From Heliocybe sulcata (Eukaryota > Basidiomycota > Agaricomycetes > Gloeophyllales > Gloeophyllaceae), in assembly GCA_004369045.1 (NCBI GenBank), contig ML213530.1:71133-135132 (forward strand): a stretch of 64,000 nt of DNA, in the 5' to 3' direction. Shown one piece after another: positions 37,438-64,000 of this stretch. The notes beneath the pieces were generated by a model. The model saw nothing but the letters and a program-made list of their open reading frames with translations. It had not been told where the DNA came from and did no database searches. Made by a program: the position numbers and the translations under genes. Position 1 is the first letter of the stretch. Each line of letters starts with the position of its first letter.

Positions 37438-37775
37438 ATCGCGAGAAACGGAGAAGATATTGTCTTGGATCAAGATACCCTTGTTGTCGTGCTTGTTTGA
37501 GTATTTTAGTGCCTTGTAGTATTTGAGTACCTTGTCCATGGGCATGCGGCTGCCCCGGTCATCACGTGATACCCGCCTCACACTCTGGGCCACTTGCTGA
37601 AAGGCCACTTGCGGAAAGGCTAAAATACATACAAACAGACTAGCGTATATATTCTCCCATTGCAGTTCTGACACCTTGCCAGTTGTTCGTGCTGCATGAA
37701 TGTCAATCCCGAACTCGTTTCCCTGCGTCTAGGACGCGAGGCTAATGCTGTCTCGCTGGATATTCCGATAGATAT
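37381..37775 (+). repeat. Source copy of duplicated OSCA-3'/HNH-5' junction
   Basis: This stretch runs from the last codons of the OSCA gene through the spacer into the first codons of the HNH gene. A diverged direct copy lies at 61,005-61,360. Shared landmarks in order are GTCGAGGTGGAGAGAAA, GATAGATAGAT, GAAACGGAGAAGATATTGTC, ATCACGTGAT, CTAGCRTATAT and the CCTGCGTCT of the HNH start. Confidence 0.85.
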
Positions 37776-39048: not shown

Positions 39049-40627
39049 CATGTGCATTCTATAGCAATCGTCTTATCATAGCATTGAATGCTTACTGTAT
39101 GTTTATTGTATTGCCATGATATTGTTATGTATATCAAGCATAAATTAACATTCACCGGCGCGGGTGGTCTCGACAGCTGAGCGCAGAAGCTTGGAGCTTG
39201 GCTTGAAACTCAAACCCGTGGCATAGGGATGTTGCTCAGCACGCTGTCTCCGCCTTCTCTTCTGAAGTCTCTCTTGATTCATCTAGGCAGCCAGACAGAC
39301 TCAAACAAGCATCTGTCGTCCAGCATTCAACTACAGCTTCGCATACGTGACTACCGCAGAGCAGCTCCAAACAGAAGGGCCCGCATCCGCTCGCATGAAC
39401 CCGCCAGTGCCTCCCGAAAGTTGACCTATTCCCTAAGCATGGAGTCAAGTCGGCAGCTTCAGAGAAGCTCCAGCGTCCACAGGTTTCATGGTTCTCCTTG
39501 TAACTTCGAATGCCGTCGGATATCCGGAAGGAAAGCCACTCCAACGGCGAGCCCCGACGGTAGATGCGCTGGTGGCGACCGCCATCTTCACAGGCAAAGG
39601 GAATTCCTCAATAGCAGCTGAAGCAGCGCGCTCGGAAGCTTCTCCGGAAGCAGGAGACTCGGTGGTAAGCCAGGTGGGTGACGGCTGAACACTGAGAGAG
39701 CAAGAAGAACATTGATGTGATACAGGTGTATGCGCTCCAGTGATAGGCTGCAGCTGCGAACGGCTGTCGACGGCGTTAGGAAAGCTGTTGACCAGGGCAT
39801 CGAGAATAGATGTCGCGCTTGCATGGGTATGGCTTTCTCCAGAGAGTGTGTCGTGAGCGTAGCACAGCATCTCCTAAGTGGACAGGAACAACGGTTGAGG
39901 AATGATTATAGACCAATACTGCACTGGTCAGCGGCGGCTGGAAGCTGAAGATTTTCGCCTAAGGGTGCTGTGAGGAGAAGAGAAGGTCCGTGCGGAAAGA
40001 AGTCGGTCCATGTTGCCCTGAAGTTGAGCGGTAGCTCGACGATGATGGACTTTATCTTTGACGACCTTATGGAGGAAATTAAGGGCCGATAAAATCTAGA
40101 AGGTAATGAAATGCGTACCAGGCACTTGAGACAGCTGGATCGAACGAGCATTTGCTGTCGATTTTTGTCGAACAACCGCTGGATGAACGAGCGGTCAGTA
40201 CTGTTATGTCACCGTAACCTCACAAAGCACCAAGCATTCACAGCTTTGACGCTTCCCTCCTGGCTAGTATTCTCCTGGGCATTTGGGTGAGTCTCTAGAC
40301 GACGTGGCAGTGCTAGAGCATGCAAGACAGTCCTGGCAAACGCCGGCACCGGAAAGGGAGACAGACGACACTACTATCAAGAGATGGCAATCATAGTGGT
40401 GGAGTCGTTGTGCCGCTAAGCTTGAAAATCAATGTAAGACGGGAGGTCTTAACGTCTGAACATGAGTTTATGCGCGCACCTGAGTTGTCAGCCAGGGGCT
40501 AACGATGCAGCCAGCACGAGAAGTAAGAAGACCTCTTAAAAGCATGCGTAATCGCTGCTAGTAATCTAAGGGGATACAGATAGTCTGACTTCTACATTAG
40601 GATAAGAATAGCACATACAAGATTCCT
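39049..40627. other. 1.6-kb region without a supported gene
   Basis: The longest gene-free stretch of the proximal arm. The best frames are on the minus strand: an ATG-started 141-codon frame at 39,870-39,445 (Ser/Ala/Pro-rich, no domain) and an 89-codon frame at 40,175-39,906 containing FDKNRQQMLVRSSCLKC. They could be parts of a small spliced minus-strand gene, but I cannot build a convincing one. Confidence 0.35.
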
Positions 40628-41963
40628 TTAAGTACTCTCCGAATTATCTGGAACCAATTTCATAACCTCTTCAATCCTACCCTCGAGCAACTTGAGGACA
40701 GTATCCAAGCCAGTCAATACACCCTCGTCAGGTCCCATGCCAGGTGTCAGCTTCGTGTGGGCGAAATCAATCAGGCGCGCCACATACGGAGCCGAGGGTG
40801 TGTCCGACGAGAGCGAGGACAGCGACGATGACAGGTTCGAACTCGAATGACTCGCCACGGCTGACTGAGAGACGGAGACAGAAACACTGCCGTCCGTCGT
40901 CGTCGTCCTGCTCGTATCAAAAGATGCATCGCCCTCTCCTTCCTCGGAACCCTCAGATTCCTCCTCCTCCTCAGAGAGGTCATCGTCTAATTCTTCCCCC
41001 TCCTCTACCGCAATCCGCTCCTCCCGCTCACGTTCTCCTTCACCCGGCTCGCCCCCAGTGACTTCCCAGATCGTTTCCGCGATTTGTGGGTGTCCCTCAT
41101 AGACGATCAGCAAGCTTCCTCCAACCATACGCATCTCAACGGACGCGACGGCTGCACGAATTTGCGTGACATCTGTCTTGAGAGACAGGAGAATGCGGAG
41201 AAGTGTCGGCGCGGGGAGACCAGGATCCGGGGTGGCGTCTGGTGATGGCTCCATAGCGCAAGGGGAGGACATGACAGGGAATATTAGTCGGAAAGCGTCA
41301 GGGAGGTCTTCCGGTTTAATGGACTTCCCGTAGGTTTTCTCTGTCTTTATCATCCCAAAGCTGACGCTGTCAAATACCTGCCGGTGCGTCAAAGAGTTGA
41401 TGGGGCGCATCCCGTGAGAGCTCGTGGAATTTACCTGGAATCCAGTCACTCTAACGCCAGTTGTAAGAGACGTCGTCGCTGCTGCTGTCTTAATCATACG
41501 CTCCTTCTTATCCGGCGAAGCCGAATCGTCATACAGGATGGTGCCGAGCTTGAGGTCCACAATGCTGGGCTTGGCGAAATTTCCTGAGACGTTCTCTAGT
41601 ACAATCCACTGCACATCATAATACAGTCAGACTGAACCAGCATGACCTGTCTATGGCACATACCTCTTTCTCGTCCGACGGAGCCTCAGGCTTGACAACC
41701 AAGTCTCCGGCTTCATTGGTCTCGCTAGAGCGGGTCAACGTCCCAACAAACTTGGGTATCCAGTCTCGTAGCTTGTCAAATTCCGTTGTAGGGAGGACAT
41801 TCTGGTAGAAGTGAAGCTCGCCCGGTAGCGTCGGCTTGATGATGAGGCTGTCATCGGCCACTGTGAGCACGCCAGGGTGGCCTCCGACTTGGTTTGATAA
41901 CGGCGTGTGTGCCCTCGAACGCTCAGCAATCTCCGACAGATTGTCCAGAGGATCCAGCGACAT
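40628..41963 (-). CDS. ARG82: Inositol polyphosphate multikinase (IPK family)
   Basis: Kinase of the IPK family that phosphorylates IP3 and IP4 towards IP5. The start MSLDPLDNLSEIAERSRAHT is at 41963. The first exon includes GGHPGVLTVADDSLIIKPTL and ELHFYQNVLPTTEFDKLRDW. After one intron: WIVLENVSGNFAKPSIVDLK, then LGTILYDD. PSIVDLKLG is the PxxxDxKxG inositol-binding motif. Later come VEMRMVGGSLLIVYEG (the SSLL-type motif) and APYVARLIDFAHTKLTPGMG, whose DFAHT binds metal. A Glu/Ser-rich acidic insert of about 90 residues separates the last two, a known feature of fungal IPMK. The stop is at 40628-40630. Length near 400 residues is usual. It could instead be the IP6K/Kcs1 branch, but the short size favours IPMK. 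Confidence 0.9.
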
Positions 41964-42313
41964 GACAGACGAGTGGAGAGTTGTTTTGGCTTATGTCCGC
42001 AAGGTATCCAAATGCCCCAATGTTCGGCGGGAGACTAGTGCAGCTCTTGGCAACGACGCGAAGTTTGTTCCTCGCCCTCGGCCAGCGTCTGCCCTTGTAC
42101 CACATCCTCTGCTTGCATGTCGAAGGCATCTCCGAATGACTGCTGTTACAGCGAGAGGCAGTACTAGTCGCGCCCAATGAACTGGAGCATGGCATAGGAT
42201 GCCAAAAACAGATACCTGTCGGGGTAATGTCCGTTGACCGATATAGGTTCCGCGCTACAAACACCGACATAGCACTTCTGAGCGCGTCTACCTCTCTGTG
42301 CAATACTGCGACG
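41964..42313. promoter_or_regulatory. Bidirectional promoter, IPMK / small unknown gene
   Basis: 350 bases between divergent start codons. The region, with the first ~30 codons of the small gene, is repeated in inverted orientation at 52,785-53,155. Shared blocks include GGTCAACGGACATTACC and TCTGTTTTGGCATCCTAT (read on the minus strand here). Confidence 0.6.
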
Positions 42314-42613
42314 ATGCCTGAGCCCCAGAATCTGAACCATGGCACCACGACATATCTTACCGTGACTCTGGCATCCTCCATCTCCCCTTCCTCGCTGCCC
42401 AGTTATCTGAACGTCAACGCGGAAGCTGCGGTGGCATTGGATAACCTCGGGAACGTCGGTGAGCTCAAGGATGTGCATCTTGTTGGTGTGCCAAAGGAGC
42501 AATGGGACACCTGGGGGAGCGAGATAGTCCAGAGGCTTCAAGCTGGCCCGGGCGTGACGGACGTCCAAGTGGTAGCGGCTCCTTCAACAAGAAGAAAGAG
42601 GGATGAGTTTTAG
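42314..42613 (+). CDS. Small uncharacterised 99-residue protein
   Basis: Not recognised. Single exon, ATG at 42314 (MPEPQNLNHGTTTYLTVTLA). A beta-alpha like pattern follows: YLNVNAEAAVALDNLGNVGE, LKDVHLVGVPKEQWDTWGSE and IVQRLQAGPGVTDVQVVAAP. The tail is basic (TRRKRDEF) with TAG at 42611-42613. No signal peptide or membrane segment. Codon usage looks coding. The first third has a decayed relocated copy at 52,797-52,860. It may be a fungal-specific small cytosolic protein. Confidence 0.6.
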   Translation: MPEPQNLNHGTTTYLTVTLASSISPSSLPSYLNVNAEAAVALDNLGNVGELKDVHLVGVPKEQWDTWGSEIVQRLQAGPGVTDVQVVAAPSTRRKRDEF

Positions 42614-42819
42614 ACCTAGTAGAAGATGAAATTGGAATGCCCGAGGTGAGTACCAATGTATGATCTACCTGCTTAATGAGTTCATACATGCTCGACTATC
42701 CAGTTTGTATCATTACGGACGTGTAAGATACAGCGTACGACTGGTATGATGTGGTTCAAGCGTGGATACCCTTTGGCGCTTGCGCCAGCAGGACAGGCCA
42801 CGGCTTCCTTCGTATCCGA
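42614..42819. other. Short intergenic gap
   Basis: About 200 bases between convergent genes. Nothing recognised. Confidence 0.5.
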
Positions 42820-44400
42820 CTATGAATCTGTGTACAGGACTACCAGCGCCGACTCTGATCTCGATGTTATCCTACACTGGAACGGAACAGGATGGCTGCA
42901 ATAGAGTTAGCATGCGGCGAATTGCATCCATATGAAGGACCATGCACGTACGCCACGATTCCGTTCACAAACTCGCGTTCAGGAAGGACCTCTCGGCCTT
43001 CCTTATCAACGTAAGTAGAGATGCGGTAGGTTCCTAGGATCGTTGCAATCTGAAGGAACAAGGAGTATTCTGCGAATTGCTGCCCTGCGGAATGAAGTGT
43101 AAGTCATCGGCTAGCATAGGCCATGAAGGAGTCTTGCTCAGTACCTGGGCATGACCTCCGTCCGAAACCGAAGGCAAAGTCCCTTGCATCTGATTGGATT
43201 GCTTGCTGGTCGGATGGCAGGAATCTTGTAGGATCGAAGACTTCCGGGTTCGGGTAAGTTTCAGGGTCCTGCAGAAGCGCCCTGAATTTACGATAGAGAA
43301 GGTGAACATTTCACGAACAGATGAACACGAAGGGATTATGCTAACCAGATATTCGCTATGACTGTAGTGCCCTTAGGGATGTAGTAACCCATATACTCGT
43401 TGTCTTGCACCAAGGAATGCGGAAGTCCTGACGATTTGGGCATGACTAACCGAGTTCCTATGGCTGCCGATATTTCACGCACCTACAGGAGCCGTATTAC
43501 CCCATCGCAGGACCTCCTTGATCAAGGCTTCGACGTAGGGCAACCGAGCTCGATCTCTAGGACTGGGCAGCCGGCTTATGCAGTCTTCCCCAGGACCCCG
43601 GCCAATCACGGAAATCACCTCCTCATGCGCCCTAGTTTGGATATCTGGGTATAAGGCCATTGCCATGAAGAAGGTCTGCATCGATGAGACTGTCTGCGGT
43701 TCTCGTATTAGCCCCTCTGAGTGCAGAATGCATCGCCTGCACTAACTGTATCGGCACCGCCTGTGTACAGACCTGCTGACGTCCATCTTATGCAGTCCTC
43801 ATCTTCCGCAGTCAACTCTGGACAGCTGCACAACAGCCGTGACATGTATGATTCTTCGTGCGTTCCTTCGTCCTAGAATGCGTCATTGAGCTCGGACTGA
43901 AGTGAGAATCTTTCGCACTAACCATCTGCTCTTTCACCCATCGCCAGGGCACCTCATTCTCCCTATTTAGGAGCTGCCGATACCGCTCCAGCTCACGCTG
44001 GAAGTGGGCCCCTGGGAGCCAAGAGGGTATGAAACGGACTAGAGTACGTTTTGTCAGACCCAGACGAGGACTAATGGTTTGTGAGGAACTACTTACGGAC
44101 CGGGAACGAGTCAACGAGGAACCTGCCCGGTTTCGTGGCCTCGGCGCTCAGGAGGTTGTTGGTCTCGACAATCTCTATACGGGACCGTCCTCCCTAGTGA
44201 CCTGGTAACCGTAGGTAACTTGCATTATGGTCCCTGTGGTGAACCTGACGCGATTATAGAATCCATGCCATTGGTGAAAGCAATAAGGACAGCCCACCCT
44301 TCAGATGTTTAGCGAACGCGTCAGGATCGCGATGAAAAGACTGGAAGAATATCCGTATCTCCTGCTGGAACAATCTGCTGCGCACTCATGATGATATGCA
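42820..44400 (-). pseudogene. Cytochrome P450, 5' part missing, likely pseudogene
   Basis: A basidiomycete microsomal P450 whose C-terminal three quarters are legible. In order: RLFQQEIRIFFQSFHRDPDA, FTTGTIMQVTYGYQVTRE, EIVETNNLLSAEATKPGRFL, RFIPSWLPGAHFQRELERYR, LYTGGADTVSSMQTFFM (I-helix, AGADT type), VEALIKEVLRW (ExxR), NEYMGYYIPKGTTVIANIW, FDPTRFLPSD, FGFGRRSCPG (heme loop with its Cys) and GIVAHPVPFQCRITSRS, ending with TAG at 42820. Later junctions splice cleanly. At the 5' end two joins fail with canonical sites (near 44,280 after HLKG and near 44,195 after TREDG), and the first ~120 residues with the membrane anchor are absent. The break coincides with the start of the zinc-finger duplication block at about 44,560. 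The substrate is unknown. Confidence 0.75.
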
Positions 44401-44791
44401 CTCTTGTAAGTCGTAGGTCAACAGTCCTGTGCCTGAGTTTGCCGCTCAATGGCTTTGTACTCGGCCTCGTTGCTGACCCTACACATAGACGCCCGAATAA
44501 TTCCCCCTGAACAGTGGCACTTGAAATTCGAGGGCTCCTTATTCAAAGCCAGTGGACTGTGTCCCAAGTGCGGTCAGCCATTATCACGTTATTGCATGCA
44601 GGCGTCGACGATGTGCCACCCGGAAACAAATTACTGCGGATACGGTGTAGGCAGCCGCAATCGAAGTCTCATAAAAAGACGACGTTGGCCAGAGGGATAT
44701 CCTCGTGCTAGGTGTGTTATCCTAATCATATAAGTACCAGAAGCTTATCGCTATATTCCAATAGCCCTTGTCCATCTCGGAAACTGGCGAA

Positions 44792-46087
44792 ATGAGTAGC
44801 TCCCATAGGCCTCTTGCTACTCGACCCGAAACTCGTCACTGGACTAGAGAACACTTTTATGATCATCCCAAGTTATTTGTCAGACACGCAGACGCTTATG
44901 TCGACGACCGATTTGACAAACCTAAAGTTTACTGCAAAATATGCTTTGACCGGCGAGTGCGGGATGAGCTGGCCAAGAACGAAGTCCAGAAGTGGAAGAG
45001 ATTGAGCCTTCTGGTAAGATATGATCTCTCGACCACTTTTTATGCTCTGACATTCGTTGGAAGTTTAGAAATCAAATGGGTACCATGCAGTCAGGACAGA
45101 GTTGCTTCGCCCGCCCCTTGCCAGATGTAAGGGCCAGCCTAGGTCGGTACAAATAGAGGCGAAAAAAAGAACAAGACGAGTACAATAGACGACACAGTGT
45201 CAATCGCAGGCACTCGTCTGCCGGCACTCCGGAAATTGATAAACCGACTCCCCCAATGCATGCTCCCCACTATGCCGCGTTAGTATCTGCGGCATTGCTA
45301 TAGACTTGTGGTTAAAGCGGCCAATCATAGATCCAGTAACTTGCGGCCGAGGCTGAAGGGTCCCATTGTGGCACTGCAGTTCCTGTGTTGACCTCCTTAG
45401 ATTCTTACCCGTGAGTCCTGGAAGAGATTCCATACCGCTTATCCTGAACAGTCGCTCCCCTTCACTGCACGCAGATTCTCTTCGGCCCAAGACTTGGAGT
45501 CTGGCTCCCCGACGCCTCCTCTGGGCTTCGGCGTGGCCCAGCAGGGCGTCACCTGCCACCCACATATTTCCAGGACTAGCTACGGTGTCATGCCTCAAGA
45601 CCCCGTTCGCGATTGGAACGAGTGCATTGACAGTGAGCAGCTCCTGCGCCATGGCACTTGGACCAGCCAGGAGGTCTCCCCACCACCACCTGCTTTATCC
45701 CAGTCTTCCGATTGAGCCTGACTGTTGGTGTTTCTGGGTCCTGGCTAAACACCGTTCTGGAATATTGCCTTGTAACAAGCCCGTCTCACACGATTCAAGA
45801 GAGCACTGCGGTGCTAGCGGTAATTGTTTCCAGTTCGCACTCGTAGGACTCTAATGCAATTATGACTTTGTCCGTTCTAACGTCTGATACTTTTCACTGC
45901 ATGCAGTACATATTTCAACAAAGATTTCGCGACTCCTTCGTATGGATATCCCTTGGCGCAGACGTCCACGTTCTATTACGGCGGCATCCAGCAGAATGAC
46001 CGTGGCGTGGAGCATATCCTTGGCAATAACTACGGTGTCATCTATGTACCTCAGCTCTCCGGCGCTCCACCAGGCAGCGGAGTATAG
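44792..46087 (+). CDS. Split-finger family member A, possibly degenerate
   Basis: Member of an Agaricomycete-type family with a CxxC...HxxxC finger split by an intron. ATG at 44792. Residues include RHWTREHFYDHPKLFVRHAD, then FDKPKVYCKICFDRRVRDEL (CxxC). After an intron ending at about 45,065 the second half reads YHAVRTELLRPPLARCKGQP followed by RSVQIEAKKRTRRV. The His expected four residues before the last Cys is replaced by Pro. A late exon has FATPSYGYPLAQTSTFYYGG, IQQNDRGVEHILGNNYGVIY and stops at 46087, aligned with family member B (54,449-55,965). Exons between 45,190 and 45,890 are not resolved. A TATA-like CATATAAG lies at 44,727-44,734. The missing His and early stop suggest decay. 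Confidence 0.45.
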
Positions 46088-46749
46088 CACTTCCTGGGGA
46101 TGGCAAAACGGTGAGTAACTCTGGCCGACATCCATAAGCTTAATCGATGCTGTTTGCAGGCTTCCCAATGACCTCCATGTCTCTTCTATCAGGACGGACT
46201 GGGTACAACGTTCATGCATAAACGCTGCAGTGAAAATTCGGTCCATATTGGCCGATAGACTAGTCAGCGACGCCAATATTAACGGATCGTTATCGACATT
46301 AGTTACCAAAGTCATACATCAGAGAAACAGCCTACATATATGATATGTGCTGATAAGATTTCATTTGATTATAATACATGTATCGTGATTTCATCAAATG
46401 TGGCTGCTTGCAGGAAGCCATCAAATCCAAGAAGGTACCGCGCGGCCCCGCAATTTTGAAATAGGCTGGCTGCTGCACGCCTCGGTGCCTTGCGTGCAGC
46501 GACGCCGGTCGCTACTCCAGTGCTCATCAACGCGCATGGGATAAACGATGCTGTCACACCTCGTGGCGACCTAATATTAATCCTCCGTGGTAGACATGAG
46601 CGGTCAACCAGTACTAGCGTGTAGTCAACCACAAACCGGAGCCAGTCTAGCCAGCCTACAAAAACACTTGAAGCCGGGATGCTGTTTGCAGAGTCTCGCC
46701 TTCAACCTGAACACCTCAAAACTGCTTCTGCGGGCATTTGTCTCTACAA
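46088..46749. other. Spacer between split-finger genes A and C
   Basis: About 660 bases. Short frames on both strands overlap but no motif is recognised. It probably holds the promoter of gene C. Confidence 0.4.
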
Positions 46750-48743: not shown

Positions 48744-48950
48744 TAGAGATGCAATGGCTTCACTTCTACAGCCAACTCGCAGACGTCTACGAGGCCACAT
48801 GAGCGACGGAGCATGAGGCTGAGTGCGGTCCAGCCTACTATGAGACTCCGTCTTCTTCCAGACGGATGGAGGGGATGCTGAATCGGTTCGACTCGTGTGG
48901 TCCACTCTACTTGCGTTTGGTATGACTTATGAAGAGGACTTTACGAAAAG
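48744..48950 (+). pseudogene. Broken copy E of the split-finger C last exon
   Basis: Shares the WLHF..(R/Q)L(R)AD..E region with gene C and about 200 bases of sequence with the D copy at 56,930-57,130 (GAGGCCACATGAG and CGACTCGTGT are common to E and D). The frame is short and not continued. No finger half is present. Regarded as a stranded fragment. Confidence 0.55.
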
Positions 48951-49267: not shown

Positions 49268-49449
49268 TTACGAGTCCTGAGGTACGAAGGAAGAGTCTTT
49301 AGCGACATGGAGCCGAATGATGATGACCGTGAGAAGAATAATGCCGAGAAGTGGTGGGAATTAAAAATGTGATCAAGACTACAAAATATTGAAACCCCGC
49401 TTGTAGTCGAGACTACAATTCTGAATTTGTAGTGCCACATTTCAGTAAT
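49268..49449 (+). repeat. Left terminal inverted repeat
   Basis: Includes GTACGAAGGAAGAGTCTTTA, AATGCCGAGAAGTGG, the palindromic TTGTAGTCGAGACTACAA and TGTAGTGCCACATTTCAGTA. Each block has its reverse complement in the right repeat. Confidence 0.85.
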
Positions 49450-49726
49450 GTGCACAGTGCTCACCCTCTGGTTGCCATAGCAATCCCATCTTCCAAATAT
49501 ATTATGTACATTACATTCTTCACCTCTCCAAATATTTTCGTGATTTTACGGTTGATTCTGAGCCTGCAGTGAGCGTCACAACAAACTGGAGACTACAAAT
49601 CATGTTCTTACCTGTTGCTTATCGTGAGAGAAGAATGTCGGAGTTTCAACCACAGGATTTCCGCGCCGGTTGGGAATCCTGGCTTCTCATTGGCTGGTGG
49701 CTTGTAATGGAGCGCTACTTACTACT

Positions 49727-49746
49727 GACTACAAAATTTTGTAGTC
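49727..49746. repeat. Perfect 20-base palindrome
   Basis: GACTACAAAATTTTGTAGTC. The half-site GACTACAA also forms the palindrome within each terminal repeat and recurs at about 49,590 (AGACTACAAATC). It may be a protein-binding site of the element. Confidence 0.7.
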
Positions 49747-50547
49747 GGACTATGATAGATTCTGGTTAAGGCAACTATGACGGACATGCAGCTCGAGAAT
49801 TGAAACTTTTGAACATGCAAGTGCGTCATAGCCCTGCTCTGACGTAATCAGCATGATGTAAACTTGTGCTGCCTTCAAATACAGCAATAAAATATGGGAC
49901 AAAATCACAAAAAATCAGCAAATATTCTAGAGAGTGGAGGCAGTGCTATAAGTGCTATTAATAACATGCTGCTATGAATCAAGTCATGTATGAAGGCATT
50001 TTACCATTGAAATCAATTCAAAAATACACAAAAATTTGGGATAATCAGCAGCACCCAGCCACCTGAAATCCACACTTATGCAAGCACAAAAGATAGCTTC
50101 CAGCAGCATAAATTAAGTGGCAAAATGCACAAAAAAATCAAGAGCTGTTGGACATACCTAGATTTCTGCTTATATAACCACATGGGCAATGCCATATGAC
50201 TTTCAGTAGTGTGAATAAACTAGCAATGTATATGCAGTCCCAGTAAGGGACTGGGGGGTGCAATTCCAAGTTCATATTTTGGACCTTATCCTCAAACTTG
50301 CATAAACAAGCATGTGCCTCCACATGCCTATGTTCTTCTACATCTGTTTCTACTTATCAACTAACTTCTCTTTTCCCCTTAGTATCTAGGTAGTATGTGG
50401 TGTTGTGCTTTTGATCTTCTTGTAGATAGTGCCTCTGTCAATGTGTATAGATAATATTTAGTAGATACTTAAGGTACATTATTGTGTCTCCATGAATGCA
50501 CTGCCTTTACTGCTGTGCATCCATATTTAAGTGGAATGCACCTAAGT

Positions 50548-50731
50548 ACTTACCTCAGAAAGTTCCAAACTCAGGACTCGTACCATGCCATGCATAGCAG
50601 TGGCCCACTTCCACAAGTAAAGATGCACGTCCTTGAGCTCAGTGACCTGCACCGGTATAATACTTGTGGAAGTGGGCCACTGCTGTGCATGGCATGATAC
50701 GAGTCCTGAGTTTGAAATATTCTGAAGTAAG
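50548..50731. repeat. Near-perfect hairpin, 72-base arms and 41-base loop
   Basis: Left arm 50,548-50,619 and right arm 50,661-50,731 are reverse complements with only a few mismatches. The inner part CAGTGGCCCACTTCCACAAG pairs fully. The arms contain CTCAGGACTCGTA, the same sequence found at the outer ends of the 3.36-kb element. Most likely a small palindromic (MITE-like) insertion; if transcribed it would give a long dsRNA stem. Confidence 0.85.
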
Positions 50732-51360
50732 TTTGGCACATGTCACTCAAATATGAGTAGGAAAGGCAAAATATTAATTGCATATCTCACATGCAGTTAC
50801 TACAATATCTACATATCGTGACAAGGATGCTATCTACAAGAAGAACCGAAGTACAACAAGCCATACCTAGATACTTGTAAGAGGGTCAAGACCAGTGACG
50901 CTTTAACCATTACACCAAAAGGCAGTATAACTGAGAACTGGTATCTCAGCCACTCACTGGTATATATGTTAGTTATGGGAACCTAGTAAGCCACCAGGCT
51001 TACAATACTAAGGTAAAGAGATAAGTTAATAAGCAAGGACAGACACATGTGGGTGTACAGGCCTGTTTATGCAAGCTTGACAACAAGATCCAAAATAAAA
51101 AATTGCTATTCCACATATTCCACCACATATTATCTAGATGACCTTCAAGGATACACTGTCCCCAGTTTGTGCACAATCATTTCTGCTTTTAGTAATAAAC
51201 CTACATGTGAAGTGGAACTCACCAAAGTATATTGTTGCTCCTTCTATATTAGGGCTACGAGATGGTGCCGGCCACAATGAGCAGCAATATTAACTTTAAA
51301 AATTCACTACTTTATTTGTAGTGGTATCTGTTCTTAAATAAGCAGCAATACCTGCTTACC

Positions 51361-52045
51361 TGAGTGTTCTTGGCTATCCTGAATTTTTGTGCATTTTTCA
51401 TCAATTGTTTCAGGTCATTTGTTCTAGCAGGGAGTATCCCACATTGTTCATGTTCTTATGTAGGCAGAGACCTAGATGCTCTTGAATCTTCTAATTTTTG
51501 GGCCATTTTCCACTCAATTGAGACTGCTAGAAGACATGCAGATGCTTACATAAGCATGATTCTCAGGTGGCTGAGTATTGGCTGATTATCACGATTTTTC
51601 GGCGTATTTGTAGTTATTTATTGAGTTGAGTTCAACAACCCAGAGCTCTTATACAGGGCTCCATGCATTTACAGGTGCTAATAACAGCTGATATAGTACT
51701 GCCCCTGTCTCCGGGAATATTCTTTGATTTATTATGATTTACCCCATCCTTTCAGGCAATTGTTGGGGCATTTTGTTACTCAAGTGATTTTGTTGGATGC
51801 CATACAGGGCTGCTTATATGCACACATAAGCATGATTCCCAGGTGATTGAGTACTGGCTGCTTATTCTGAGTTTTTTGGTGTATTTTTAGGTATTTAAAC
51901 TCAGTTCAACAACAAAGAGGCCTTATACAGGGCTCCATACATTCCCAAATGCTAATAATAGATCATATAGCACTGACTCTGCTTCCAGGAATATTTCCTG
52001 ATTTATTGTGATTTTTCCCATATTTTATCGCTGTCTTTGAAGGCA
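51361..52045 (+). repeat. Diverged tandem repeat, period about 275-285 bases, running into the gap
   Basis: Two clear copies: CATAAGCATGATTCYCAGG at 51,549 and 51,825, followed in both by GAGTAYTGGCTG, GTTCAACAAC, TTATACAGGGCTCCAT and a TTTATTRTGATTT block. A partial earlier copy starts near 51,380 (GTTTCAGG..ATTTG). The last copy is cut by the Ns. Confidence 0.8.
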
Positions 52046-52441
52046 NNNNNNNNNNNNNNNNNNNNNNNNNNNNNNNNNNNNNNNNNNNNNNNNNNNNNNN
52101 NNNNNNNNNNNNNNNNNNNNNNNNNNNNNNNNNNNNNNNNNNNNNNNNNNNNNNNNNNNNNNNNNNNNNNNNNNNNNNNNNNNNNNNNNNNNNNNNNNNN
52201 NNNNNNNNNNNNNNNNNNNNNNNNNNNNNNNNNNNNNNNNNNNNNNNNNNNNNNNNNNNNNNNNNNNNNNNNNNNNNNNNNNNNNNNNNNNNNNNNNNNN
52301 NNNNNNNNNNNNNNNNNNNNNNNNNNNNNNNNNNNNNNNNNNNNNNNNNNNNNNNNNNNNNNNNNNNNNNNNNNNNNNNNNNNNNNNNNNNNNNNNNNNN
52401 NNNNNNNNNNNNNNNNNNNNNNNNNNNNNNNNNNNNNNNNN
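52046..52441. other. Assembly gap (396 Ns)
   Basis: Undetermined bases. Any frame through it is meaningless. It follows directly on a tandem repeat, so repeat collapse is the probable cause; the true size may differ. Confidence 0.95.
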
Positions 52442-52446
52442 TGCAG

Positions 52447-52628
52447 ATTACTGAAATGTGGCACTACAAATCAAAAACTGTAGTCTCGACTACAACCGGA
52501 GTTTCAATAAAGTGTTATCGAGACTACACTTTTAATTCCCACAGTTTCTCGGCATTATTGTGGGAGGATCTGCATTGTTCGGCGTCGACCCGGTAAAGAC
52601 TCTTCCTTCGTAAACTCAGGACTCGTAA
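52447..52628 (-). repeat. Right terminal inverted repeat
   Basis: Mirror of 49,268-49,449. Shared blocks read here as ATTACTGAAATGTGGCACTA, GTAGTCTCGACTACAA, TTTTAATTCCCAC and TAAAGACTCTTCCTTCGTA. Confidence 0.85.
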
Positions 52629-52784
52629 TTACTACAGTGGGGTCGCTCACTAAGGGAATTTCGGAATTTCAAAGGATTTTTGCGACGTTATTGGCTGGGA
52701 GCCACCCATCCTGTACGGATAACCACTGCAGATACACTCTATTAATGTCACCGTAGTTTACGCGTTACGCATTGATGATGCAGA

Positions 52785-53155
52785 TAGCTAGCGGTAGCGA
52801 GGAAGGGGAGATGGAGGATGCTAGAGTTATAGTAAGACGTCGTACTGTCATGCATGCATGCTCGTATATGCACAGAGAGATAGACGTGCTCAGAAGTGCG
52901 TCGGTGTTTGTAGTGCCAAATGAAACAGGTATCATGATTGGTCAACGGACATTACCTCGACGCATATCTGTTTTGGCATCCTATCTATACAGTCAGTTGG
53001 CTAGTATGCAGCTGCCTCTCGTTCTATCAGTCCTCCAGGCCCCCGGAATGGAAGCACAAGATGATGGGCGAACACTGCCCGAGGGCGACGGACGAACTTC
53101 GTGTTGTCGAGGTTGCCACCAGCCGTTCGGGCCACGTTGCTCGTGTAAGGATCAG
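52785..53155 (-). repeat. Inverted, decayed copy of the IPMK/small-gene promoter
   Basis: Reverse-complement copy of about 42,030-42,405. Matching blocks (plus strand here) are AGCGAGGAAGGGGAGATGGA, GCACAGAGAGATAGACGTGC, GGTCAACGGACATTACC, ATATCTGTTTTGGCATCCTA and GAGGGCGACGGACGAACTTC. It includes the start and first codons of the small gene but no usable frame. Confidence 0.85.
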
Positions 53156-53504
53156 GTGCCGGAGAAGATCGGGAATGATCGAAATGGTTTGAGATGAGAT
53201 GGCAAACGACTTCTTCGACTGATCGCCGATTATGACGCTTCGCTCAACCTTGTATGGCGAGCCAGACATAATATTGTAGTGATGCTAATAGTGGCTACCA
53301 GAAATTGAATGGCCAGACGCACGTGATGGCCCAGTATCCCTTGACGTTTGAAGAATCATAAGCAGCGGTAAACGTCAGCATAACTGAATGGATCATTTCG
53401 CTGGCGTGATCCGTGACGCGTGACGAGCTGCAGATTGCAGGGCTCAGCTGCGGCCTGCGCAGACCTTGATGATCTACCGCTGTATGTTCACCGGCGGCCT
53501 CATG

Positions 53505-53770
53505 GCCTCATGGCAACATCGTCACTGGGAGTCGGACTCCGTGCGCTGCCTGCTCGGAAACAGACAGGTGCAGCCTCCAGAGCCTAGCACAGGACATACG
53601 TGGGGCACCACAATTGGCTGGATGTTTATAACCTCGCACAGGCGGCTATCCGGAACCCCGAGGGAAGGCCCAAACTTGCAGTCGGGCACCCCTACTAGTG
53701 CTGTTCACGCAGGATGTGCCCCGTCCTCAAGACGCGACCTTAGTATGCCGGCATAGGACACTTGTCGCGT
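53505..53770 (+). repeat. Left member of an inverted repeat flanking split-finger block B-D
   Basis: Homologous to the reverse complement of 57,195-57,565: shared blocks CTCGGAAA.CAGACAG-like, GGCTGGATGTTTATAACCTC and ATGCCGGC.TAGG. Divergence is considerable. No gene is recognised in it. Confidence 0.65.
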
Positions 53771-54294
53771 TGGTGCCATGACGAACCAGTGCGCTTAACA
53801 TGCTATTCTCCTACTCTCAGAAGGCTGTCCTGTCAAAGAGATATCGCGCAGACGCGATAGTACGTTATATAGATACTACCGCCCCAAATCTGCGACTTGG
53901 CGAGTAAGAACTCATTGCCGCGAGTAAATCGAGCGTGTAACAAGTAACAGCATTATAGTCAAAGAGTGGCGAAGGGAAGCTTTTGGCGACCTATACGCCA
54001 CTCAATTCTGTAGGCCACGGTACGAAGATCGAGCGATGGCGACTGCACTATGAAGCGCTAAGCGTCGGACGACCAGCGACGTCCTATGAAGACCAGCATG
54101 CACTCAGATGCATCTCTGTAAGTTACACCCCGACAATTCTGTTGCTGAATTCAGTACTCAATTGGCTCTATTTGTTGTCCTACAGACAATCCGCTGATCT
54201 ATGGACAATGCCCCTGATGAAATCTGCCGAGAAGTCTGAAGTGATCGCGATATAAGGTTCAAGTGCTTCTGCTCAAGATAAGCGTATCCTGATG
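53771..54294. other. Spacer
   Basis: About 520 bases without a supported gene. A 90-codon frame at 53,983-54,255 is unremarkable. Confidence 0.4.
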
Positions 54295-54384
54295 AAGGGG
54301 TGTGGTCAGCCACCATGACATTCTCGCAGCAGGTAGCCTTGTCGGTAAAGGTCAACCTAATGCACATGTGGCGCGCGCTACCCA

Positions 54385-54390
54385 TATAAA
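54385..54390 (+). promoter_or_regulatory. TATA box of split-finger gene B
   Basis: TATAAA in CCCATATAAAACACTAGG, 59 bases before the gene B start codon. A related CATATAAG stands at the matching place before gene A, and the surrounding promoter sequence (CCAATAGCYCTTGTCC) is shared. Confidence 0.5.
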
Positions 54391-54448
54391 ACACTAGGAG
54401 CCCATCGGTGTCTGCCAATAGCTCTTGTCCGCCCCACAACCTAGCACG

Positions 54449-55965
54449 ATGCCTGGTTGCCCTTCGTCTTTGGACAGTCGGCATTGGACTCGCCACTGGA
54501 CTCGGGCATATTTTTATGATCATCCGGGGCTCCAAGGTAAAGCACCAGAGGCTTATGCCGACCGCCGATTCGACAAACCCAAGGTTTACTGCATGAAATG
54601 TTTCGACAAGAAAGTGGGTGAGCTGATAGCCGATGCAAATGGCAGTCGCAGCATGGACGACATCACACGCGTCGGTCAGTCCTCTCTTCTCTAAAGCTTC
54701 TCCATAATGTGAAGTTCGATGAAAGTATGGGAGTCGGACGGATGGCACCCGTCCAGACCTGGACCGCTCTGCCAACATCTTATGCAATGCGATGGACAGC
54801 CTGGAACGGTCAAAGAGCGAGCGAGGGATGAGCACGAAGAACGTAACACGAAGCGTTGCGAGGCCAGGCGCCTGCACAAAAATGGCGGTCAGCGCCCATC
54901 TGGTGGCACGGGGGCGAGGTACGCACCCCATGCGCCGCAGAATCGTGGCCAACAGACTCAGTGAGTCCGATCGTCACTGCTGTGGTGTCCCGGTCAGTGT
55001 TGATACTTTGTCCTGCAGTCATGACTCCTTGGCTGGATTTCACACCTCTGGAGGGAGCACTGTGACATCTGCCGTGCCCCACTTGAGTCCTTACATGTAG
55101 GGCTTTGGTAATATTATTACCTGACTCAAGCTGACGTCGGTTGCTTCATTATACACAGGTTTTCTCCCATTCGAGCCTCTGAGGCTGCATCAGTTCTGCC
55201 CTATGTCCCCGAATATGGAATGGCACAGTATTCGGGGGAATCTTGGGCGTATTTGGGAAGGACTCAGTACAGCGGGAACTACAATGAACCTATTGTCGAC
55301 ACCGGCTATGCGGTTATGTCTCAGGTGGCCGGCCAGAACAGGGAACCGCCGCCGCCATCGAATCCAGGCCAGCACGCTGAGTGCGCATCCTACTTGTCGT
55401 CGCTGGGTCGTGGCTAACGTCTATATTCCAACGTGCAGGTATGGCCTTGCGACTGGATCTCACATGATTCAAGAGAGCATTGCAGTGCCAACGGCAACCT
55501 GTTGCGGTCCACAATCGTAGGACCCCGACGTAATCATGGTTTTTCCCATCCTGACGCCTGCCAATTTTGACTGCATGCAGAACATGGTTCGTCGGAGGAT
55601 TTGCGATTCCTTCGTACGGTCATCCCTTGGCGCAGCCGTCTGGAGGGTTCACGCTCGATTCCAGCGGTATCCAGCAGAACGACCACGACATGGGGCACAT
55701 TACTGGCGGTACCTACGATGCCGTCTATACGCCTCAGCCCTTTGCTCCACTAGGAGATCTGGACAGCAACAACCGAGTTCAGTACGGCACTTCTTGGGGC
55801 GAGGATGACGGAACGGTGACTGATTCCTGGCTCTCGTCCGCAAGCTTCACTAATGTTGTTCACAGGCTTATGAGGACAACAAGGTATATTCCACCAGCGT
55901 ACATGAGCTGGACAACACATCAGGGTGTGCTGGTAGTACGTCCATTCATGCTACTCTCCGCATAA
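54449..55965 (+). CDS. Split-finger family member B
   Basis: Paralogue of gene A, better preserved. ATG at 54449. Residues 8-18 repeat RHWTR in tandem, then AYFYDHPGL, FDKPKVYCMKCFDKKVGELI (CxxC). A later exon near 54,735-54,870 gives GWHPSRPGPLCQHLMQCDGQ and PGTVKERARDEHEERNTKR, with HLMQC as the HxxxC half. The middle is Tyr/Gly/Gln-rich (VLPYVPEYGMAQYSGESWAY, LGRTQYSGNYNEP). The last exon reads FAIPSYGHPLAQPSGGFTLD, SSGIQQNDHDMGHITGG and VQYGTSWGEDDGTVTDSW, ending at 55965. The finger plus low-complexity, prion-like tail suggests a nucleic-acid-binding protein; the finger form is known from Agaricomycete transposon-derived genes. Exon borders between finger and tail are provisional. Confidence 0.5.
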
Positions 55966-56051
55966 GGTCTGACTAGGTGCACGATGTCAGTGTGGTAAAG
56001 CTGAGCGTTGATCCAGCATTCTCACTTTGTATCACTTGATCGCGACCGCTT

Positions 56052-57140
56052 TTGTCCGTTATATGCTTTCTTCCTTTATCACCTTTATCGAAATATCTAG
56101 GACAAATTGTGCCGTACATCAATGTGTTGTGCCCTGAATGTCTTGTCCCTGATTCCTTTCATCAGTTTTCATTTCGATACCTCGACTTTCGGTTATCGGT
56201 GGTGGCTCTTTTAGTCAAACAGACGACCTGTTATCCTCATCTCGTGTCCGCCATTAGCTCACAGTCAACCGTCGACCAAATACAAACATGCCACACCTGC
56301 GCTCAGCCGCCGTGGAAGATGCACCCTTTCATGAATGTTATTTCCGCGTGCGGCCGCCAGTATACGTTGATCACCAAGGAGCGCCGTCGTGTCCGACGCG
56401 TGGACGCAAGCCCAAATTGGTGCCGTCCATATTTCGGGGAGGAAGCGCGCCTCGAGACAATCAAGAGTCCAAGCAAGTTGCTTCAAGAGGAGCAAGTCAA
56501 GGACCAAATTGTCATGTGGATGGAGATCTTCCGGACATCATTGACGGCCCCCGAGGTTGGGAACCAGCACTATGGAACATGCCAGCTAGGGCGAGAAGAC
56601 GGGGTTAGGGTAATGTCCAGCAAGAACTGCACCCTCGCGGTCCACGTTAGCGCATGCTGTTCCCTGAAATCGGAAGGGCGGTTGGTGGCTTACGTAATAT
56701 GTAAGCATCGTCGGTACCGTACTGCGTTCAGGAATCCTCAATGTAAATCCTGAATATGAGGCACCGCCACCCTCCAGCTCTTCGATCCTTCCGCGGGCCC
56801 CGGACGTTGCAAGTCCCGAGATAGCAGATATCAGATTATGCGCCCGCTGCTTCTGTTCGCAAAGCTGCGGTCTGTCGTAATCTGTCCGCAATTCCGGTCG
56901 GCTGGTGCCGCTGATTCCACATATCTGGCTACATTCTTCGTGGTCTCTTCGGGCAGACATCTACGAGGCCACATGAGTAATGTGCATGAGGCTTCAAGTT
57001 GCGCGCTGCCGAGCCTCATACAAGGCTCACTGCTCTTCCAGACGGACGGACGGAAGGCTGAATCGGTTTGACTCGTGTAGTTCACTGTGCTTGTGTTTTC
57101 ATGATTTGTGAACAGGCCTTTGCGACATCAATTTTACGAC
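56052..57140 (+). pseudogene. Decayed copy D of the gene C region
   Basis: Its right part (56,750-57,140) matches gene C and fragment E: LPRAPDVASPEIADI parallels QIPDVAVHEASDTE of C, and IWLHSSWSLRADIYEA parallels PWLHFDNRLRADPHED. The left part has a 233-codon open frame (56,052-56,753, no ATG until 56,319) with PNWCRPYFGEEARLETIKSP, not recognised and perhaps a decayed finger exon. The last-exon frame breaks soon after the shared motif. Confidence 0.4.
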
Positions 57141-57194
57141 GTACCACGACATCTGGGATGCATCTCTTCGGCAGAGCAGCGTTCTGAGAGCGGA

Positions 57195-57565
57195 AGAGTT
57201 CACATGTACAGCATTACTGGCGTGTAGGTTGTGTTTTGCCATTTCCCCGACACGACAGGTGACCTAAGCCGGCATAAATCGCGCCTCGAGCGGGTGTCGT
57301 GCAACGAGACACGTCCTAGATGGCCAATTTCAGTGTGTGCGTGGTAGAGCTGAGCATTGCCTCGGGGTTTCGGAGCGAGGCGGTTCCAAAACTGTACAGC
57401 TGTGATTGAAAAATTGACGCCCGAGGTAATAAACATCCAGCCGTTGGGCTTCGATCTCATGTCCTAAGCTCCATATATACGCTGCACCATTTGGCACGGA
57501 CTATACCAAGCTTCAGCTTCAAATGCTGTCCGTTTTCCGAGCGGGCGGCCCATCGAGCCCAACTC
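57195..57565 (-). repeat. Right member of the inverted repeat flanking block B-D
   Basis: Reverse-complement partner of 53,505-53,770. Together they bracket 53.8-57.2 kb. No gene is recognised in it. Confidence 0.65.
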
Positions 57566-59198
57566 CCACTAGTGATCGCCATACAATCTATCTAGCACAT
57601 TGTTAGTTGTAAACGTCGCCATGAGATTATCGGTGAACGTTGAACATACAGTGGCCTTTCCATCCGATCTCTGTCGCACTCATTGCAGTACTGGAGAAGG
57701 TCTGTGCAGGTCGCACCAGGTCTGGTGTACCTACGTTCGGCAGGTCGTGGCGCAATACGCTGACCACTGCTTACTATTCTCCAAGCTTCAAAGCATACTA
57801 GGCCATCTCGTGCGTCAAGCCATTCAGTTTCTGGTAGCCATTAGCATCTGCAGCAATTTCAAACCAATCCGATTCTTCCCGATTGTGACCTCCCCAGCAC
57901 CTCCGAATCCTTACGCGAGCAGACCATTTAAACTCTCTCCCGAACTTCTGCCTCAACAGTTATGCATCTCTTTGCCTATCACTTCCGCTGACTGGCCAGG
58001 TAGATTGCAGGATATATGCGAGCCAAGAGTTCGATAACCGTCCAGTGCGTTATTCCAACATATGTAGCATTCATCCCGAACTCGACTCTTCGCGAGATCA
58101 CATTCGGCTAGCTTTGCCCTCCGCTGTCCTTCAAAGCTTCAAGCTTCATCTCCTGCAGAACATTCTGTCTTCGCGTGGCCACCTCCTTGTTAATCCCATC
58201 GCCGACCCTCGTCTGCCCGTCGCACTTCTCCGATTTCCCCGTCCATCGCCGCGATCTTCGTCGTGAACCCAAGCTGGCATAGGTATCCACGCTCCCATAC
58301 TGACTCGCCCGGGCTACTTCTTAAGGCGCCGAGAATCGACATCACGTCGACGCAGTCGCCCCGCCTCTCGCCTACGTTCATCTCCACCCGAGTCCACCGG
58401 CACCTCTCGCCCGTTATCTTGGGTTTCGTCTCCCGCCTGCTCTGACTCCTCGCTCCGGCAGCCGATCCGAGCATCACCCTCAGCGGTATGCAAGCGGCCA
58501 GCGCCGTGATTTGCAGAGGATTACCTGATGCCACTTCAAGAATTCCATCCGCTCCAACAAACACTTGGCTTGTTTGTATTCTTCGCTCCCATTCCCGCTA
58601 GCCCAGATTTCATGCTCTCACTCGGGACTCCGAGGCCTCGCTCCCAACTTCACCTGTGCTCTCAGTCAATCGTCCTCGCTCAAGGTTCCAGCTTCTCGGC
58701 TTCCCGGTCCCTCCTTCTGCTGCGGAACGACTATCTAGGAAGCTCACACCCCATCGCCGCTCGCTTATTAACGCCGTGTTGAACAATACTCTGCTTGGCT
58801 CTGGCCTTCAGCCTCACGCTCCTCCCGCGCCCCAGGGTGCCGTCGGACGCAACTACCGTGGTGCAGTCTCCTACTCGAACACTTTATGATCTCAAGATCT
58901 CATTCATAGCGCGCTAGTCGGTTCGACTCCGGCTTGTTCTATTATTGCCGAGACGTTACACCCCCGCGTGTCCATACTCGACCACTTGCCTGCAATACTT
59001 CTGCCTCCTTGCTCCTGCAGTAGCATTCCAATCAGGCCCAGCTTACTCTCGGGCAGCGGTTGACTGTTGAACGTTGAGCGACGGACGCAGACGGGTGGTC
59101 AAGCGTACGTTCGTCGAGATACTCCTTCTCTTCCTCGTCCATAGGCTGAGGAGAGGCGATATCTGGGACCTCGGGTTTAGGCATGGCATCTGCACTGT
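57566..59198. other. Unassigned region with fragmentary frames
   Basis: Plus-strand frames at 57,600-58,037 (145 codons), 58,045-58,266 and 58,656-58,889 show coding-like stretches (for example SPELLPQQLCISLPITSADW; LQPHAPPAPQGAVGRNYRGA) but no recognised domain, and they cannot be joined with confidence. It may be the remains of a gene or of duplicated flanks. Confidence 0.35.
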
Positions 59199-60128
59199 TT
59201 GAGGAAGCACTTATTGCGGTGGAGTGCAGCGACCGGAGTTCGACCGTCGTTTTGTAGTCTCGGACATGTCGTCCTCGTCACAGACGGCGGCGACGATCCC
59301 CCCATCTCCGTCGGCGACGACGGCGCCCAGATTCCCTTCTCCGCCATCCCTTCTTCCAAAACATTCACCATCGGGCCCTCCACGTCGCGCTCCGCCCTTG
59401 TCTCCCTCTAGGTGAACCCACTGCTCGGCGACTGGGAGGTCATCGATTCCCCTGGGATCGGCACTCACAAGTTCTCCACGCCCCCCGATCCCCCGTCCTT
59501 GCATCCTCGGTTTCCTCAACATCGCAGTATGATTACTCCACGGTTTGGGACCCATCCGCGCCCGCCAGTGCCGCGTCTCTCTCGGGGACACCACCTGGAC
59601 CTTCTACCAGCTACAAGAAAGGGCTGACGAGCAAGCTATGGAAGCCCCTCCTTATGCCTATAAACCTCTCCAAGAAGTCTTCCTTCAATCTCCCAAGTAT
59701 CAGCACTAAGAGTGTTGGTCTCGTCAGGTAAGCCTCTCCCCTTTGTTTCACGCACAAATCCCTTCGCCGGCGGCGATTTCTCGAATCATCTTCCCACCGA
59801 GACCCAACCATACCCCCGTGATTGTTACTTTTATTCACCTACTCTATCTCCTGCATCGCAACATCCTGTATACACGGATACTGATTTACTCTACGTGCTC
59901 AGATCATCCTCGTGCGACCCCTCCCCAGGCTTTAGCTACGGTGCTTCGCTCTCTGGCTTCTTCTCCACGCAATCCACGCAGTCTGACGCCACCTTCTTCT
60001 CCATCGGCGCCTCCTCTAGCACGCTCGCCCTCGTAGGCACCCTGTCACTCACCTCAGAGCCCGACGAGCCGAGGAAACGCAAGCTCCTTGAGCATGGGCA
60101 TACGACTGTGGCGGTACCGCATCAATAG
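59199..60128 (+). CDS. Low-confidence Ser/Pro-rich gene or pseudogene
   Basis: Not recognised. The stretch 59,525-59,718 reads YDYSTVWDPSAPASAASLSG and KLWKPLLMPINLSKKSSFNL. A donor GTAAGC at about 59,729 and an acceptor GCTCAG at about 59,903 then join SVGLVR to SSSCDPSPGFSYGASLSGFF, ending in PDEPRKRKLLEHGHTTVAVP and a stop at 60126-60128. Upstream pieces (GDDPPISVGDDGAQIPF, then NPLLGDWEVIDSPGIGTHKF) are separated by an in-frame TAG and by a change of frame, so the gene may be broken. The start is not defined. Confidence 0.3.
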
Positions 60129-61004
60129 CATCATGCATCGGAGGAAGGCGTGGGTAAGAGTGAGGAGGGGAGTGAGGAGAGAGTGCGGAGCAGAACCGGG
60201 CGGTTGAGGACGGGGTAGGTGCATTCTGGTTTGTTTCTTGTGTACTGTACTTATTGGGTGGTGATAGGAGGAAGAAGAGGAGCAGAGGAGGAAGGCGCTG
60301 GGAGCTGGCGTGGAGAAGGGTCGGTATAAGGAGGTAGGGGGGGGAGGGCGGTAGTGCTCTCCGTCCCTTGTTGCCGACACTGCCGCCGATGGTTAATTGG
60401 GCCTCGGTGCTGGGTTTTGGAGACTCGTTCGGTTTCATCTTGTTATAATCATCACTACTCGCACTTCGCCTCCTTCCGGGCCTCGATACGACTTCAGTAC
60501 TCAGTCTCGCTGAGTTTTAGAGACTCGGCTCGTTTGAGCTGGGTTTCGTCTCATACCACTCGTCACAACCCGTATCCTCAACTTTACGCGTTCACGTGTA
60601 CATCTATGGCCACTTTCTGTATGATCCGCTTCGCCACGATCGTTCATGTCATACGAACACGCCATCGCCGCTTCGACTGTTTTGCGACGCGCACGAGGCT
60701 CATTCACGACTACAGCAATTATTAACCATTCGCCACGCTGGCAGTGTTCACCGTGTTCACGGACATGCTCCTCGCTTACAGCAAAATAGTGTACGTCTCC
60801 TGCTAGATTCATATTTTTCTTGGCGATGAGAGGACAAAGTAGTCCGTTCTGCTTTTGGTGTACGTGCGTTGAGATAAACTCGACACTACTCCAAGTGTCC
60901 CATATTCCGAGGGCGTTACACACTCTTTGTGCGGTTACTCCGGGGTACTAAAGGGTCCTGCCGCACTCCTGGTCCGTAAGGATTCGTATCCTTACAGGGC
61001 GATA
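60129..61004. other. Intergenic, purine-rich at 60,260-60,350
   Basis: About 880 bases. A G/A-rich tract (GGAGGAAGAAGAGGAGCAGA and similar) lies at 60,265-60,350. No supported gene. Confidence 0.4.
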
Positions 61005-61360
61005 GTCGAGGTGGAGAGAAACCCGCCAGATGAGGCTTGGGCGAGTGGGCATGATAGATAGATGGTGAGAAACGGAGAAGATATTGTCTTGGATTAAGCT
61101 TATACCCTTGCATGCTGTTTACTTGTTCTTGTCCATGGCCATGCAACACAGCGATGACTTGTCCTGACCATCACGTGATCCCCCTCTCTCAACCTCGCCC
61201 GGAAAGCTCCGGAAAGGCGAAAATAAAATACAAATAGACTAGCATATATTTCAATTCTGACCCTGTCGATCCCAAACTTGTCTACCTGCGTCTGGGGCGC
61301 GATTTTGGCGCGATTCAGAGGTTACTGCTGTCTGGCTCCAGGCTGGATATCCGGTAGATG
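61005..61360 (+). repeat. Relocated copy of the OSCA-3'/HNH-5' junction
   Basis: Direct, diverged copy of 37,381-37,775, 23.6 kb away. It begins in the last OSCA codons and ends in the first HNH codons (CCCAAACTTGTCTACCTGCG). It has no usable frame of either gene. Confidence 0.85.
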
Positions 61361-63950: not shown

Positions 63951-64000
63951 TCCACGAGGCCTACGCTCCCCCGGGCTACATCCGTGGACGACTACCCGAC

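What the first reader, a model, noticed from the sequence alone, without database searches (positions are those of the whole stretch)
52785..61360. Distal region is a rearranged, decayed copy of pieces of the 37-49 kb arm
Three separate segments from 37.4-49 kb occur again between 52.8 and 61.4 kb: the IPMK/small-gene promoter (inverted, 52.8-53.2), the split-finger block (direct, 54.3-57.1) and the OSCA/HNH junction (direct, 61.0-61.4). The copies keep gene starts, ends and spacers, so they are DNA-level segmental copies, not retrocopies. Divergence is similar by eye in all three, hinting at one event followed by rearrangement around the long-TIR element.
Basis: partly seen in the sequence, partly recalled or inferred. 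Interest (0 to 1): 0.7.

Follow-up and report, generated by a model that had tools for sequence, protein, structure and literature searches.

The report
Decayed patchwork of neighbouring gene pieces
A stretch of a fungal-type chromosome is littered with old, broken copies of pieces of its neighbouring genes, apparently made by more than one round of local DNA copying plus one small inversion; it is an instructive but ordinary kind of genome scar.

Summary
The copies are real but probably not one event. Divergence agrees for promoter and OSCA/HNH pieces (82-85% identity, p=0.69) but not for the main finger block (64.5%, p=3e-23), which is probably older. Also missed: 58707-60777 copies gene X, whose parent lies beyond the window (C28:137557-139912). 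Undoing one inversion (58961-60996) makes X collinear and rejoins the OSCA/HNH pieces, leaving X joined to the OSCA tail at a 4-bp overlap. Segment 40513-44380 has its own 93.8% inverted partner 41 kb away and may be the derived one. With the TE masked, 23% of C28:108-168 kb is internally duplicated (10% without that pair), against 0.34% of the 99 kb to its left. The long-TIR element holds none of the pieces and is not needed. Best reading: serial local duplication, decay and one inversion. Ordinary in kind.

The parts
37060..37377 (+). Parent of piece C: coding tail of an OSCA/RSN1-type channel gene (PHM7_ext domain)
37373..37773 (+). Parent of piece D: last OSCA codons, spacer and start of the HNH-like gene
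42043..42438 (.). Parent of piece A: divergent promoter between IPMK (-) and a small gene (+)
40513..44380 (.). IPMK (-), small gene (+) and 5'-truncated P450 (-); inverted 93.8% pair with C28:156473-160370 outside the window
44722..46192 (+). Parent or older paralogue of piece B1: finger-gene block
48779..48946 (+). Parent of piece B2
49268..52628 (.). Long-TIR transposable element with TA at both ends; not part of the copies; part of it reads N
52744..53123 (-). Copy A (inverted) of the IPMK/small-gene promoter, cut on both sides
53138..53865 (+). Left arm of an old inverted repeat (three matching pieces), no third place found in the genome
54378..55897 (+). Copy B1 of the finger block, 64.5% ungapped identity
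56953..57125 (+). Copy B2
57139..57921 (-). Right arm of the inverted repeat
58707..58834 (+). Copy of the 3' flank of gene X (C28:137557-137680), left of the inversion
58961..60996 (-). 2,036-bp inversion; undoing it restores collinearity with gene X and with OSCA/HNH
58961..59273 (-). Copy C: OSCA tail, inverted, with 4 of 5 gap runs out of frame
59270..60777 (+). 5'-truncated, frame-broken copy of gene X (parent C28:137889-139912, minus strand)
60976..60995 (.). Perfect 8-bp-stem hairpin ending one base short of the right inversion breakpoint
60997..61359 (+). Copy D: OSCA stop, spacer and HNH-gene start

Best explanation
52.7-61.4 kb is a graveyard of short segmental copies of genes that still lie about 6-23 kb away on the same contig. 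Shown: the homologies, orientations, divergences and frame breaks, and that one inversion puts the gene-X and OSCA/HNH pieces back into parental order. Inferred: an older duplication made the finger block; a later one (or a few close in time) copied the IPMK promoter, the OSCA-tail/HNH-start and gene X, with OSCA tail and X joined end to end at a 4-bp overlap; a 2-kb inversion then split the OSCA/HNH copy. Later still the segment 40.5-44.4 kb and C28:156.5-160.4 kb arose from each other as an inverted duplicate. The long-TIR element is a separate insertion. The non-homologous join with a short overlap suggests end joining or replication template switching rather than unequal crossing-over.
For: K2P: A 0.204, C 0.174, D 0.175, X 0.249, B2 0.258, B1 0.492, IPMK-segment pair 0.066. 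Heterogeneity tests. With the inversion undone, X matches in 6 of 6 blocks in parental order and orientation (as it stands: 1 direct, 5 inverted), then OSCA/HNH in one 606-column alignment (382 bits) instead of 261 + 138 bits; 4-bp overlap of the X and OSCA alignments at the join. Few further copies in the 31.6-Mb genome (one 77-bp match of the X parent on C4). Frame breaks: 4 of 5 gap runs in C and 3 of 3 in the X coding part are not multiples of three. No Pfam family at E up to 0.01 in 63 hand-picked ORFs of the 112 of 55 aa or more in 52.5-64 kb. Duplicated fraction, TE masked, each stretch against itself: 23.2% of 56.8 kb (C28:108001-168132, 14 pairs) against 0.34% of 98.9 kb to its left (2 pairs).
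Against: X is marginally more diverged than A+C+D (p=0.044), and its third codon positions much more (0.268 against 0.108 in C), so X and OSCA/HNH may be of different age. More than half of the duplicated fraction is the IPMK-segment pair: without it 10.0%, and within the window part alone 9.5%. The mechanism rests on one junction; a 4-bp overlap can be chance. No related strain or species was available, so order of events and parent/copy direction are inferred. 53.1-54.4, 55.9-56.9 and 57.1-58.7 kb have no known parent.
Confidence: 0.75

Rival explanations
1. One reading: one duplication of the 37-49 kb arm, then rearrangement; the finger block looks older only because both of its copies evolve freely while the other parents are constrained.
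For: A, C, D and even B2 agree (p=0.29). If neither finger copy is constrained its divergence could be up to about double. The conserved part B1b is less diverged (72.3%, K2P 0.360).
Against: Third positions of the OSCA tail differ by only 0.108 (11 of 102), against 0.355 over B1; gene X does not come from that arm; A is inverted and C/D lie on the wrong side of B.
Confidence: 0.12
2. The finger blocks are an old tandem gene pair, possibly both still genes, and have nothing to do with the decayed pieces around them.
For: 50% protein identity over 64 residues in open frames of 90 and 121 aa; only these two places in the genome; much larger divergence than the neighbouring pieces.
Against: Little 3-base periodicity of differences in 150-base steps along the block (one step, 45950-46099, hints at it), so little sign of coding constraint over most of it.
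Confidence: 0.35
3. The long-TIR element moved or captured the pieces.
For: Copy A begins about 115 bp from the element's right end.
Against: No copied piece lies between its TIRs; copies B, C, D and X do not abut it; parts of it are 92-99% like places elsewhere while the pieces are 15-35% diverged.
Confidence: 0.04
4. Assembly artefact or uncollapsed alleles.
For: None seen, apart from the N stretch inside the element.
Against: 15-35% divergence with frame breaks and different order is far beyond allelic difference or assembly error (inference).
Confidence: 0.02

Closest known systems
Local segmental duplication with pseudogene decay in eukaryote genomes
   Same: DNA-level copies of spacers, promoters and gene ends; local; more than one age
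   Different: Pieces are short (0.2-1.5 kb) and below the usual 1 kb / 90% cut-off, except the 3.9-kb IPMK-segment pair
Microhomology/microsatellite-induced replication (MMIR) in yeast, PMC2518615 (abstract and list of sections read)
   Same: Duplication joints at microhomology, chimeric joins of gene pieces
   Different: Here one joint with a 4-bp overlap, old and decayed; the mechanism cannot be shown from sequence
Duplications mediated by TIR DNA transposons, PMC8277862 (seen in a search listing only)
   Same: A TIR element lies close by
   Different: The copied pieces are not inside the element

Membership tests
Segmental duplication (strict: at least 1 kb and at least 90% identity; the 1 kb is recalled, the 90% also stands in the abstract listed for PMC4053137) | Length and identity | tested here: not met
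   Pieces A-D and X: 64-85% and, but for B1 and X, under 1 kb. The pair 40513-44380 / C28:156473-160370 meets it: 3,859 sites, 93.8%
Decayed DNA-level segmental copy | Includes non-coding flanks, not spliced | tested here: met
   A is promoter, D spans stop codon, spacer and next gene start
Decayed DNA-level segmental copy | Frame broken relative to parent | tested here: met
   C: 4 of 5 gap runs out of frame; X coding part: 3 of 3. Not tested for B, which may be coding
Single duplication event | Same divergence in all pairs | tested here: not met
   A+C+D p=0.69, with B2 0.29, with X 0.044, with B1 3e-23
Dispersed repeat / transposon | Many copies genome-wide | tested here: not met
   At E up to 0.001 only parent and copy for B, C and the inverted repeat; for D the same up to 37715; for A one more; for the X parent one 77-bp match on C4
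TIR-transposon capture (Pack-type, name recalled and in the abstract listed for PMC8277862) | Captured pieces between terminal inverted repeats | tested here: not met
   None of the pieces lies within 49268-52628; the N stretch inside could not be looked at
Replication template switching (MMIR/FoSTeS-like; FoSTeS recalled) | Microhomology at joints, mixed orientation, nearby donors | tested here: inconclusive
   4-bp overlap at one joint, mixed orientation, donors about 6-23 kb away
Mating-type locus | STE3 receptors or homeodomain genes at the site | tested here: not met
   14 STE3 matches, on C11 and C16; 2 homeodomain matches, on C16 and C1; none on C28

The most novel reading that the evidence does not exclude
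The right part of C28, from the OSCA stop codon on, is a duplication hot spot in which replication repeatedly switches templates among neighbours within tens of kilobases, giving mixed-orientation patchworks of 0.2-4 kb pieces of several ages, a gene array in at least seven places and a palindrome-linked inversion, while the adjacent 99 kb stays nearly free of duplication.
Probability: 0.15. Interest if true: 0.5.

Novelty: new member of a known kind. Interest (0 to 1): 0.28.

Why it matters
It is a readable case of how small local copies, end-to-end joins and inversions turn gene pieces into intergenic DNA. The sharp change from 0.34% to 23% internally duplicated sequence along one contig (10% without the largest pair) marks a border between a quiet and a dynamic stretch that comparison with sister strains could test directly.

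Tried and rejected
Mating-type locus: rejected. tRNA at the inversion edge: a T-arm-like motif at 58920-58930 is the only match to that pattern in the held C28 sequence, but ARAGORN finds nothing in the window, in five further loci or in the strict run over C28:9133-168132, nor does Rfam at E up to 1 in window 36000-64000; the loose ARAGORN run gave 438 calls and was discarded as noise. The stretch 58840-58962 has no other place in the genome at E up to 1. RIP-like or CpG mutation: over pairs A, B1, B2, C, D together, parent C against copy T is most frequent before G (57 of 320), but copy C against parent T is as frequent (58 of 322 before G, 62 of 338 before C), so no directional signature (B1 dominates these counts). 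Transposon-driven copying: disfavoured as above. A stop codon that first looked like a nonsense change in the window P450 probably lies in an intron (my reading) and is not claimed.

Full report
Setting. The window is C28:71133-135132 of a 31.6-Mb genome in 51 contigs. No relatives are held for it.

Observation. A: 42043-42438 against 52744-53123, inverted. B1: 44722-46192 against 54378-55897, direct; B2: 48779-48946 against 56953-57125, direct. D: 37373-37773 against 60997-61359, direct. Against 36-49.3 kb the region 52.6-61.4 kb gives 6 matches at E up to 0.05; the same region merely reversed gives none. Pfam supports the parents: OSCA/RSN1 with its PHM7_ext tail, an inositol polyphosphate kinase, a P450 fragment, a double zinc ribbon just before the finger block (below its curated cut-off) and HNH_2 (below cut-off) (55 hand-picked ORFs of the 134 of 55 aa or more in 35-49.1 kb). 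Of 63 hand-picked ORFs (of 112 of 55 aa or more) in 52.5-64 kb none has a Pfam match at 0.01.

Divergence. Ungapped identity and K2P distance: A 82.4%, 0.204; C 84.6%, 0.174; D 84.5%, 0.175; B2 78.3%, 0.258; B1 64.5%, 0.492 (its best part, B1b, 72.3%, 0.360). A, C and D are homogeneous (p=0.69; with B2 p=0.29); adding B1 to A, C and D gives p=3e-23. Its other refuter, many further copies, is not: B has no other place in the genome at E up to 0.001, nor has the protein of its open frame; C and D have none up to 37715, after which the HNH gene matches relatives on C6; A has one more, in the partner of the IPMK segment.

Gene X and the inversion. Window 58707-60777 matches C28:137557-139912, beyond the window's end: 58707-58834 in direct and 59270-60777 in inverted orientation. 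The parent has open frames of 316 and 507 aa on the minus strand without a Pfam family. C and D are one continuous stretch in the parent (they share five bases at 37373-37377), but in the copy C is inverted and lies 1.7 kb from D. Both oddities vanish if 58961-60996 is turned round: six X blocks fall into parental order and orientation, followed at once by an unbroken 606-column OSCA/HNH match, 382 bits instead of 261 and 138. The X and OSCA alignments overlap by 4 bp at their join. A perfect 8-bp-stem hairpin (60976-60995) ends one base short of the right breakpoint; the scan listed 7 such hairpins in 64 kb, some overlapping. C has 4 of 5 gap runs out of frame and the X coding part 3 of 3. 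Against one age for both: X is somewhat more diverged (p=0.044 with A, C, D) and its third codon positions much more (0.268 against 0.108 in C).

The arm itself is not simply the original. Window 40513-44380 matches C28:156473-160370, inverted, at 93.8% ungapped over 3,859 sites. The IPMK frames are open in both; third codon positions of the main exon differ twice as much as first and second (0.115 against 0.053, Fisher p=0.0009), as expected if both were under selection for at least part of the time. The outside copy's P450 has an exon matching profile positions 34-135 that begins before the shared segment; the window's P450 lacks it. So the window segment is probably the derived one, or has lost its end. 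Piece A is about equally far from both (0.204 and 0.194), so it probably predates their split.

Surroundings. With the TE masked, 23.2% of the held 56.8 kb of C28:108001-168132 is duplicated within that stretch (14 pairs), against 0.34% (2 pairs) of 98.9 kb to the left. Much of this is the IPMK-segment pair: without it 10.0% (13 pairs); within the window part alone 9.5%. The left stretch is the only control. From about 61.9 kb starts a family found in at least seven places on C28 between 133 and 243 kb. An old inverted repeat (53138-53865 / 57139-57921) brackets the finger copy; no third place was found. The long-TIR element 49268-52628 ends in CGAGTCCTGAG with TA on each side (my reading); 49268-50618 is 98-99% identical to places on three other contigs, other parts 92-99%.

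Mechanism. The pieces are DNA copies from about 6-23 kb away, in mixed orientation and probably of at least two ages. The direct X-OSCA join at a 4-bp overlap fits end joining or template switching, such as the yeast MMIR route (PMC2518615, abstract and list of sections read), better than unequal crossing-over between long repeats. One junction cannot decide this. The direction parent to copy is inferred from gene integrity, not from an outgroup.

Verdict. Real, partly misread, ordinary in kind.

Noticed in passing
window about 61800-64000 and C28:133-243 kb (L026-L032): A family of roughly 2-2.8 kb units, pieces 73-95% alike, in at least seven places in both orientations on this contig and weakly on C32; open frames look like a membrane segment and a coiled coil (my reading), no Pfam hit in the frames tested.
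   Followed up: partly
window 49268-52628: Long-TIR, TA-flanked element made of two imperfect inverted arms; a search with 49200-53400 gave 152 matches in the genome, own place and both strands included. Part of it reads N.
   Followed up: partly
window 40513-44380 and L042: Two open IPMK genes 41 kb apart in an inverted 93.8% duplicate, one beside a 5'-truncated P450.
   Followed up: partly
window 58920-58930: tRNA T-arm-like motif about 30 bases from the left inversion breakpoint; no tRNA found by ARAGORN or Rfam.
   Followed up: partly
window 61527-61770: Short element 98% identical to C22:66894-67134 with diverged relatives on C17, C19, C41 and C6; contains a 10-bp-stem palindrome.
   Followed up: no
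window 37716-39053: HNH-like gene with relatives at 68-70% DNA identity: five longer matches and one short one, on contig C6.
   Followed up: no
L054/L042 (C28:152948-154076 and 160421-161509): An inverted pair, 71% alike, one member holding an HSP20 gene, on either side of the outside IPMK/P450 segment.
   Followed up: no
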